Assembly: GCA_947174365.1 (NCBI GenBank)
Contig: CAMWIR010000005.1
Span: 1-44,401 of the forward strand
Reading direction: 5' to 3'
Length of the DNA: 44,401 nt
Source of the DNA: an uncultured Ruminococcus sp.
GTDB lineage: Bacteria > Bacillota > Clostridia > Oscillospirales > Ruminococcaceae
Program-made: the position numbers and the translations under genes
Notes under the pieces: model-generated
The model's database searches: none
Seen by the model: only the letters and a program-made list of their open reading frames with translations
Told to the model about the DNA's origin: nothing
In this document: positions 33,792 through 35,738 of the stretch, piece after piece
How positions within the stretch are numbered: the first letter of the stretch is position 1
Layout of the letters: each line of letters starts with the position of its first letter

Positions 33792-34352
33792 CTATGTAAA
33801 CGAATACTCACAATCTGCCTGTCCCCTATGATATGTACATTCAATTATTTCGGCAGGACTCATTTTTTCAATATACATCAAACAGCGAAAAGCCATTCCG
33901 TGCCCCACAAAAATAACCTTGTCATAATCTGCATACCTGTCCGCAACACGTCTCATTCTTTGCCTCATATGGCTGAGAGATTCCCACCTGAATTCCTCAC
34001 CCGGCGGATACTCACCGTTAAACCTCGTGAATTCTCTCGCAAGCGCAAAGCTTTCCTCGGATGTTTCATACATATTATCCCGATCGGGTATCCATTCATG
34101 CAGATCTAAATCGACCTCGACCCGCAGCCCTGTCTCCCGTGAAATAATCTGAGCCGTCTGCAGCGCTCTTGTATAGGGAGAAGAAACAATAACCTCCGCA
34201 CTTTTAAGACGAATATCCTTTGCCGTTATTTCAGCCTGTTCCCTTCCTTTTTCGGATAAGGGCGCAAAATCTCTGCCAAATCCCCAAAATCCGTTTTCAA
34301 GCATATTATCATAAACCGGCTCACCATGTCTTATAAGATAAAATAATGCCAA
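33792..34352 (-). CDS. Histidine phosphatase family protein
   Basis: 'LFYLIRHGEPVYD', 'VSSPYTRALQTAQIISRETGL', 'VIFVGHGMAFRCLMY'; SD ggagg followed by likely TTG start near 34352. Confidence 0.85.
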   Translation of the reverse strand: MALFYLIRHGEPVYDNMLENGFWGFGRDFAPLSEKGREQAEITAKDIRLKSAEVIVSSPYTRALQTAQIISRETGLRVEVDLDLHEWIPDRDNMYETSEESFALAREFTRFNGEYPPGEEFRWESLSHMRQRMRRVADRYADYDKVIFVGHGMAFRCLMYIEKMSPAEIIECTYHRGQADCEYSFT

Positions 34353-34435
34353 CGTTATTATACCTCCGTTTACAAAAATCACAGACCCAACGATCAACGC
34401 TCAATGACTTTTTTATGTTTAAGTTTGCTGTAAGG

Positions 34436-34954
34436 TTATACTTTTGCCAATTCTTTCTTGGAATTTTTCTCTATGTATTCTGAACAAACTTTTTCAAGCA
34501 AAAGAAAATCATTGCAACGTCTTGCCAACGGTGTATCATTACCGTTTTCTAATTTATGCTTATACAGCATAACTGCATTCTTTCGGATTTTTCCCTTATA
34601 GACTTAATATATCTGTATTCTGCCAACAACAACGCTTTATACTTGCAGTCCTGCACAGTTTCAAAATCAACATATTCACGTTCGGTTTTCGGAACCGGAA
34701 ACATATTGTTTAGATTTAACACAGCATACCTAAGTACCTTAATGAAATCCATACTTTCTTTCATTCTTTCATGCTTTGGCTTAAAAGATGACAGTGGCAC
34801 AAAATAATCCAATCCATTAACTTGCATAACGATCCCTATGTACTTCCGAGCATTTTTTTGTCCATTCTTGCTGTTGCGGAACATATGCGGCGCATATGGA
34901 ATTATTATAGTTTATATAATCTCTGTTTATCTCATAAAATTTGATATCTTCCAT
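34436..34954 (-). pseudogene. Type III toxin ToxN/AbiQ family, disrupted by two compensating frameshifts
   Basis: Conceptual protein across three frame segments: MEDIKFYEINRDYINY / IIPYAPHMFRNSKNGQKNARKYIGIVMQVNGLDYFVPLSSFKPKHERMKESMDFIKVLRYAVLNLNNMFPVP...KALLLAEYRYIKSIREKSER / NAVMLYKHKLENGNDTPLARRCNDFLLLEKVCSEYIEKNSKKELAKV*; SD ggagg upstream of ATG 34954; 519 nt, so start and stop share a frame. Confidence 0.8.
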
Positions 34955-34976
34955 TGATCCTCCGACTTTAAACAGA

Positions 34977-35001
34977 GAGGGCAGACAAATTGCCTGCCCT
35001 C
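34977..35001 (-). terminator. Hairpin between the ToxI-like repeats and toxN
   Basis: gagggcag-acaaattgc-ctgccctc, perfect 8-bp stem, no strong T-run. Confidence 0.6.
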
Positions 35002-35021
35002 CTGTTATGATCGCACTTTTG

Positions 35022-35133
35022 AGCGGCGAAACGCTCACTTGTAAACGTCTTGATTTGTGAGCCAAGAGAAGCTCTCATATAAATTTCTCATTTATGGGCT
35101 GAGATACACCCACTACGTAAGAGACAGGCTTGT
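35022..35133 (-). ncRNA. Candidate ToxI-like antitoxin RNA (about three diverged 37-38 nt tandem repeats)
   Basis: Units (minus strand) 35133-35097, 35096-35060, 35059-35022; each ends with a stem running into the next unit's CA; upstream consensus promoter and downstream hairpin before toxN. Confidence 0.6.
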
Positions 35134-35155
35134 CCACCTGTTACTTTGCACTTTT

Positions 35156-35184
35156 ATTATAACATGTCTATATTGGATTGTCAA
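35156..35184 (-). promoter_or_regulatory. Perfect consensus sigma-A promoter (TTGACA-17-TATAAT) for the ToxI-like RNA
   Basis: Minus strand TTGACA 35184-35179, 17-nt spacer, TATAAT 35161-35156. Confidence 0.85.
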
Positions 35185-35234
35185 GTGGTTTTTGGTAGTT
35201 TTTTGTCGATTTTTAGCACTTTAATAAAATTATT

Positions 35235-35738
35235 TTACTCAAAAAGCCCCTCCATTTTATGGATAAGCAGTTTTCCGCCCTCTATGTCGGTTTTTTCGAT
35301 AACATCGGGAATGGCAGGAATGAGATAAACATTATCGCCGCTTTTTATATGGTAAACATCATTCGCACCCGTGCTTGTGACCTCCGAAAGAACGCCGTAA
35401 ACCTCGCCGCTGTCAGCGTCCTCCACGGAAAGCCCTATAAGATCACGGATAAAATAAGTGCCCGCAGGCAGCTCCACATCATCACGGTTCATATAGAGAA
35501 TTTTCCCCCGCAGGGTCTCCGCTTTTTCGGGAGTGTCAACACCCTCCAGTTTCATTACCGCCACATTTTTGTGAGGACGGCTTTTTTCCACATTCACAGG
35601 GGTCTTGCCCTTGTTAAAATAAAGCTCATCAAAGCTGCAAAGGAATTCGACGCTGTCGCACCACGGCTCGACCCGCACTTCACCTTTAAGTCCCTGCACC
35701 GCCACTACCTTTCCTATTTCAAGAAACTGCTCTGTCAT
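35235..35738 (-). CDS. rimM: Ribosome maturation factor RimM
   Basis: 'FLEIGKVVAVQGLKGEVRVEPWCDS', 'YFIRDLIGLSVEDADSGEVYGVLSEV', 'LIPAIPDVIEKTDIEGGKLLIH'. Confidence 0.95.
   Translation of the reverse strand: MTEQFLEIGKVVAVQGLKGEVRVEPWCDSVEFLCSFDELYFNKGKTPVNVEKSRPHKNVAVMKLEGVDTPEKAETLRGKILYMNRDDVELPAGTYFIRDLIGLSVEDADSGEVYGVLSEVTSTGANDVYHIKSGDNVYLIPAIPDVIEKTDIEGGKLLIHKMEGLFE

What the first reader, a model, noticed from the sequence alone, without database searches (positions are those of the whole stretch)
34436..34954. Hidden type III toxin toxN split by two compensating frameshifts
The ORF track reports only a 111-aa middle fragment and an unrelated-looking upstream ORF. Reading the three frames in order yields a near-complete ToxN/AbiQ-like protein: MEDIKFYEINRDYINY, then ...IPYAPHMFRNSKNGQKNARKYIGIV...YFVPLSSFKPKHERMKESMDFIKV...LNLNNMFPVP...ALLLAEYRYIKSIREKSER, then NAVMLYKHKLENGNDTPLARRCNDFLLLEKVCSEYIEKNSKKELAKV-stop. 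The first shift is near TATAATAAT (about 34900), the second near GAAAGAATGC (about 34590). Start and stop are in the same frame over 519 nt. The pattern fits a disarmed toxin whose SD, promoter and RNA partner remain intact, or less likely phase variation or assembly errors.
Basis: partly seen in the sequence, partly recalled or inferred. Interest (0 to 1): 0.7.

Follow-up and report, generated by a model that had tools for sequence, protein, structure and literature searches.

The report
Disarmed ToxN toxin, antitoxin RNA kept
A Clostridia bacterium carries a small self-poisoning (toxin-antitoxin) defence module whose RNA-cutting toxin gene is broken in two places while its protective RNA, built from three different knot-shaped units instead of identical repeats, is still there; a sister species has lost the toxin altogether but kept part of the RNA.

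Summary
On the minus strand at 34436-34954, three reading frames read in order give a full-length ToxN (Pfam PF13958, positions 2-159 of 159, E 1.8e-41). Eight or more intact homologues (52-64% identical over the middle piece) carry the same gene in one frame. The two frame changes cancel in length only: from the start codon ribosomes make 45 residues and stop, so this is a null allele. The rest of the module stands: a perfect promoter, a Shine-Dalgarno and an antitoxin RNA that keeps 26 of 27 base pairs. Sequencing error is unlikely but not excluded: 22,986 nt of other window genes show no frame change against the sister species. There, toxN is absent and an orphan antitoxin remnant sits behind the neighbouring phosphatase gene.

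Beyond the finding, this clade's antitoxin is not a tandem repeat. It is three different H-type pseudoknots in fixed order, supported by strong covariation, in Clostridia and Treponema. Tandem Repeats Finder sees none of them, but sees arrays in 15 of about 24 other ToxN loci. The locus is a decaying ToxIN module of a variant subtype. The broken toxin is ordinary; the antitoxin architecture is more interesting.

The parts
34436..34954 (-). toxN pseudogene (ToxN/AbiQ-family endoribonuclease toxin), frame broken twice
   Evidence: PF13958 full length when read through the three frames; intact relatives
34817..34954 (-). what the start codon actually gives: 45 residues (first ~16 of ToxN, then out of frame) and a stop
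   Evidence: translation
34549..34884 (-). middle ORF, 111 aa, ToxN core with the conserved RKYIG and PLSSFKPKH motifs (last ~12 residues are out of frame)
   Evidence: PF13958 1e-28; alignment to relatives
34436..34590 (-). C-terminal piece of ToxN (RKNAVMLYKHK...RCNDF...), in the frame of the start codon
   Evidence: PF13958 positions 130-159 at 0.001; whole-genome profile search
34959..34963 (-). Shine-Dalgarno GGAGG of toxN
   Evidence: sequence
34977..35001 (-). terminator-like hairpin between antitoxin and toxin; T-tract weak (CTCTGTTTAAAG)
   Evidence: 12-nt arms, 92% complementary; not reported as a terminator by the scan
35004..35040 (-). antitoxin unit C, H-type pseudoknot (loop stem UCGC/GCGA)
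   Evidence: aligned in 16 loci, covariation
35041..35078 (-). antitoxin unit B, H-type pseudoknot (loop stem UCUUG/CAAGA)
35079..35114 (-). antitoxin unit A, H-type pseudoknot (loop stem UCUCA/UGAGA)
35115..35155 (-). 5' leader of the antitoxin RNA, with an extra small hairpin (ACAGG/CCTGT) not seen in the sister species
   Evidence: sequence comparison
35156..35184 (-). promoter TTGACA-17-TATAAT (12 of 12) with extended -10

Best explanation
The locus is a decaying type III toxin-antitoxin module of the ToxIN kind. Its ancestor made an RNA antitoxin of three pseudoknots from a strong promoter. By read-through of a leaky terminator hairpin it also made a small amount of ToxN, an endoribonuclease that cuts the precursor into units, is held inactive by them and is released on phage infection. 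In this genome two frame-changing indels have silenced ToxN, so no toxin is made while the antitoxin RNA is probably still transcribed. The toxin died first because losing the antitoxin first would kill the cell. The sister species shows a later stage: toxN gone and the RNA reduced to units A and C. Shown here: homology, the broken frame, the promoter, the pseudoknot covariation and the sister's loss. Inferred: transcription, lack of toxicity, order of events, phage defence as the ancestral role.
For: ToxN homology of all three pieces and of the whole. Intact relatives in one frame with the same promoter-antitoxin-hairpin-toxin order. The core keeps the RKYIG and PLSSFKxKH motifs and 40 of 46 columns invariant in nine relatives (one search gives 40 of 49; three of those lie past the second shift), and no nonsense codon was found in the family frame, so the break is recent. 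Antitoxin: 97% of cells paired, 15 pairs with changes on both sides against 7.4 in shuffles (0 of 500), and every slid control far lower. Sister species G005: rimM joined to the phosphatase without toxIN, orphan units A and C with promoter and hairpin elsewhere, no toxN of this clade found in its genome. No frame change in 22,986 nt of the window's other genes against that species; two by chance in toxN alone about 5e-4.
Against: No reads are available, and one frame change lies at a short A run, a place where errors occur. The neighbouring genes are not a perfect control for error rate. The toxin core is otherwise nearly perfect, which is also what an assembly error would leave.
Confidence: 0.82

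Rival explanations
1. Assembly or sequencing error: toxN is intact in the organism and the module is an ordinary working ToxIN.
For: Otherwise well-preserved toxin core, antitoxin, promoter and Shine-Dalgarno; opposite-sign indels; one at a short A run.
Against: No frame change in 22,986 nt of other genes compared with the sister species; both indels in one 519-nt gene (chance about 5e-4); the sister has lost toxN altogether; the T-tract of the terminator is weak.
Confidence: 0.14
2. Phase variation or programmed recoding: ribosomes or slippage restore a little full-length toxin.
For: Start and stop are in one frame and the toxin core is preserved.
Against: Two separate recoding events of opposite sign would be needed; no homopolymer longer than about 5 and no canonical slippery heptamer at the second site (inspection); no relative uses this layout except an unrelated single break in Treponema berlinense.
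Confidence: 0.03
3. The orphan or disarmed antitoxin RNA is kept by selection, as an anti-addiction RNA that protects against ToxIN carried by incoming prophages. (This is an addition to the best explanation rather than an alternative to the broken toxin.)
For: Antitoxin structure kept after toxin loss in two sister species; close relatives of the system sit beside phage genes (tape-measure-like, terminase-like) or on viral contigs.
Against: The sister's RNA has lost unit B and is rearranged; too few sequences to tell constraint from lag; plain decay explains the same facts.
Confidence: 0.12

Closest known systems
ToxIN / AbiQ type III toxin-antitoxin family (Pfam PF13958; structures 4ato, 7d8o, 2xd0, 4glk)
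   Same: Toxin homology over the full profile; order promoter, RNA antitoxin of ~36-38-nt H-type pseudoknots, hairpin, toxin.
   Different: Toxin gene broken here; antitoxin units are three different pseudoknots in fixed order rather than near-identical repeats (P. atrosepticum ToxI is 36 nt x 5.5, B. thuringiensis 34 x 2.9, AbiQ 35 x 2.8 according to PMC5086642); no tandem array found by TRF.
CptIN family (Eubacterium rectale, PMC4627078)
   Same: Type III logic, H-type pseudoknot RNA, Firmicutes host.
   Different: CptI unit is 45 nt and the complex a heterotetramer; no CptN (4RMO) hit among solved structures at E up to 1.
Second ToxIN of the same genome (contig C1, 77276-77764)
   Same: Same Pfam family, intact frame.
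   Different: About 30% identical to the middle piece; its antitoxin is a classical 33-nt x 3.3 tandem array.
Orphan antitoxins (described for other toxin-antitoxin types, e.g. papers listed)
   Same: Antitoxin kept without a toxin.
   Different: Here the orphan is a type III RNA; no report of such a case was found in the papers held.

Membership tests
ToxIN (type III, ToxN/AbiQ) | Toxin belongs to ToxN_toxin PF13958 | tested here: met
   1e-28 for the middle piece alone, 1.8e-41 read through
ToxIN (type III, ToxN/AbiQ) | Open reading frame for the toxin | tested here: not met
   Two frame changes; 45-aa product. Intact in relatives
ToxIN (type III, ToxN/AbiQ) | Tandem array of near-identical repeats upstream | tested here: not met
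   TRF finds none here or in the 18 clade loci with upstream sequence
ToxIN (type III, ToxN/AbiQ) | Several ~36-nt H-type pseudoknot units in the antitoxin | tested here: met
   Three units, 27 pairs, strong covariation
ToxIN (type III, ToxN/AbiQ) | Promoter before the antitoxin | tested here: met
   12 of 12 sigma-70 match; consensus only, transcription not tested
ToxIN (type III, ToxN/AbiQ) | Terminator hairpin between antitoxin and toxin | tested here: inconclusive
   Hairpin present, T-tract weak, not found by the scan
ToxIN (type III, ToxN/AbiQ) | Endoribonuclease activity, neutralised by the RNA; 3:3 ring complex | not testable with these tools
   needs bench work
CptIN | Toxin closer to CptN than to ToxN | tested here: not met
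   Only ToxN/AbiQ chains matched among solved structures

The most novel reading that the evidence does not exclude
This ToxN clade uses an antitoxin of three non-interchangeable pseudoknots with distinct loop stems, perhaps one for each corner of the 3:3 ring, which also prevents mispairing and slippage between units. After toxin loss the RNA is retained as a free-standing protector against prophage-borne ToxIN of the same clade.
Probability: 0.12. Interest if true: 0.65.

Novelty: new variant of a known kind. Interest (0 to 1): 0.4.

Why it matters
It catches a type III module in the act of decay, with two sister species at successive stages, consistent with toxin loss before antitoxin loss. 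It also shows that searches for type III systems that require a tandem repeat array (the published criterion, PMC8860590, PMC5086642) would miss a clade spread over Clostridia and Treponema whose antitoxin units differ from each other, so such systems are probably under-counted. Three distinct natural units in one RNA make it testable whether ring positions are equivalent.

Tried and rejected
Rfam at E up to 10 gave only a chance sRNA match near the phosphatase end, no antitoxin family. NCBIfam did not name the 111-aa piece. Four candidate frame changes there all involved open frames antisense to the called genes and were rejected. Phage and plasmid records gave only distant ToxN, under 60% identical. 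A programmed frameshift, phase variation and a functional split protein were considered and rejected: two opposite events are needed, there are no long simple tracts, and the middle ORF lacks the N-terminal ~23 residues and the C-terminal ~50. The 27th base pair (last pair of unit C) is absent here but also in most relatives (9 of 16 including this one), so it is not decay.

Full report
Observation. The minus strand at 34436-34954 starts with ATG and ends with TAA in one frame over 519 nt, but that frame stops after 45 residues. The 111-aa middle ORF is a clear ToxN (PF13958, 1e-28; PADLOC AbiQ 1e-22; PDB chains 4ato, 7d8o, 2xd0, 4glk), and the C-terminal piece matches the last 30 positions of the same profile. 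Read in order with X at the joins, the pieces cover 2-159 of 159 positions at E 1.8e-41, close to intact relatives. This is far beyond chance.

Relatives. Close relatives (52-64% identity over the middle piece) were found in Clostridia metagenome assemblies, in Treponema, and on viral contigs. All but one read ToxN in a single frame. Against them the window's frame departs after about codon 16 and returns at about codon 122; the two changes are of opposite sign, so start and stop agree. Within the correctly framed middle part, 40 of 46 positions that are invariant in nine relatives are kept and the changes are mostly conservative (40 of 49, three of them past the second shift). So the protein was recently functional.

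Error or mutation? In 22,986 nt of the window's other genes that could be compared with the sister species G005 (79-99% protein identity for nearly all), no frame change was found; four flagged cases were open frames antisense to genes. Two indels falling in toxN by chance would have a probability of about 5e-4. Reads are needed to close the question.

Sister species. In G005 the same neighbourhood (methyltransferase, phosphatase, rimM) is present at 83-95% protein identity. There rimM is followed directly by the phosphatase, with no toxIN between. Behind the phosphatase lies a copied tail of rimM followed by a promoter, antitoxin units A and C, and the hairpin, but no toxN. No toxN of this clade was found elsewhere in that genome, which is about 83% complete. 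A tandem duplication followed by deletions is the simplest inference. In most other species of the genus rimM is followed by trmD, or by an aldo-keto reductase-like gene and then trmD (by sequence inspection), so this neighbourhood was probably rearranged in the ancestor of the two species.

Antitoxin. Upstream of toxN, intact relatives and the window share three units of about 36-38 nt. Each is an H-type pseudoknot with its own loop stem: UCUCA/UGAGA (A), UCUUG/CAAGA (B) and UCGC/GCGA (C). On 16 loci the 27 pairs are formed in 97.0% of cells. Fifteen pairs have changes on both sides against 7.4 +/- 1.8 in shuffles, and the covariation score is 0.383 against 0.183 (0 of 500 shuffles); sliding the partners by 1-3 columns drops pairing to 36-53%. 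The structure was drawn from these sequences, so the pairing percentage leans to it, but the double changes, above all between Treponema and Clostridia, do not follow from that. The window keeps 26 of 27 pairs; the missing one is absent in most relatives too.

Units differ within a locus (55-60% identity in the core) more than the same unit differs between non-Treponema loci (81-91%). In two loci (L017, L020) the B unit is A-like, and L067 and G005 lack B. Tandem Repeats Finder reports no array in any of the 18 clade loci with upstream sequence, but reports one in 15 of about 24 other ToxN loci (Fisher p 1.4e-5; related loci are not independent). On a protein tree the window falls in the clade with 97/96 support.

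Mechanism. By homology with studied ToxIN systems (PMC5086642, PMC8860590), ToxN cuts its precursor RNA into units and is held in a ring by them; phage infection frees it. In this genome the toxin half is dead; the RNA half should still be made from a consensus promoter (not tested). The weak T-tract after the hairpin may be early decay, since its task of limiting toxin read-through is gone; one intact relative (L085) is weak there too. Toxin-first loss is expected because antitoxin-first loss is lethal (inference from how toxin-antitoxin modules work).

Novelty. A broken toxin gene is ordinary. The non-repetitive, three-pseudoknot antitoxin was not found described in the papers held, but the original classification paper is not held, so this may be known. 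The locus is best called a remnant of a variant ToxIN subtype.

Noticed in passing
L015:3931-4432 (Treponema berlinense ATCC BAA-909): A second, independent frame break near the same N-terminal stretch of toxN; the antitoxin unit A also lost one base pair that its near relative L016 keeps.
   Followed up: partly
G000 contig C1:77276-77764 (L001): A second, intact ToxIN with a 33-nt x 3.3 antitoxin array close to the contig end; the sister species has the same system (L008).
   Followed up: partly
L014:307-3705; L085:346-1953: Intact relatives lie next to large genes that look like a phage tape-measure protein and a terminase large subunit (by sequence inspection, not scanned), so the clade appears to travel with prophages, unlike the window copy among housekeeping genes.
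   Followed up: partly
L028:780-870: The sister species holds a displaced copy of the 3' end of rimM fused to the orphan antitoxin, behind the phosphatase gene.
   Followed up: partly
window 33792-35738: trmD, the usual neighbour of rimM in this genus, is missing after rimM in this species and its sister; a histidine-phosphatase gene stands there instead.
   Followed up: partly
L073 (G133 contig C22:22549-23013): Another Clostridia toxN with one internal stop codon, beside a 38-nt repeat array.
   Followed up: no
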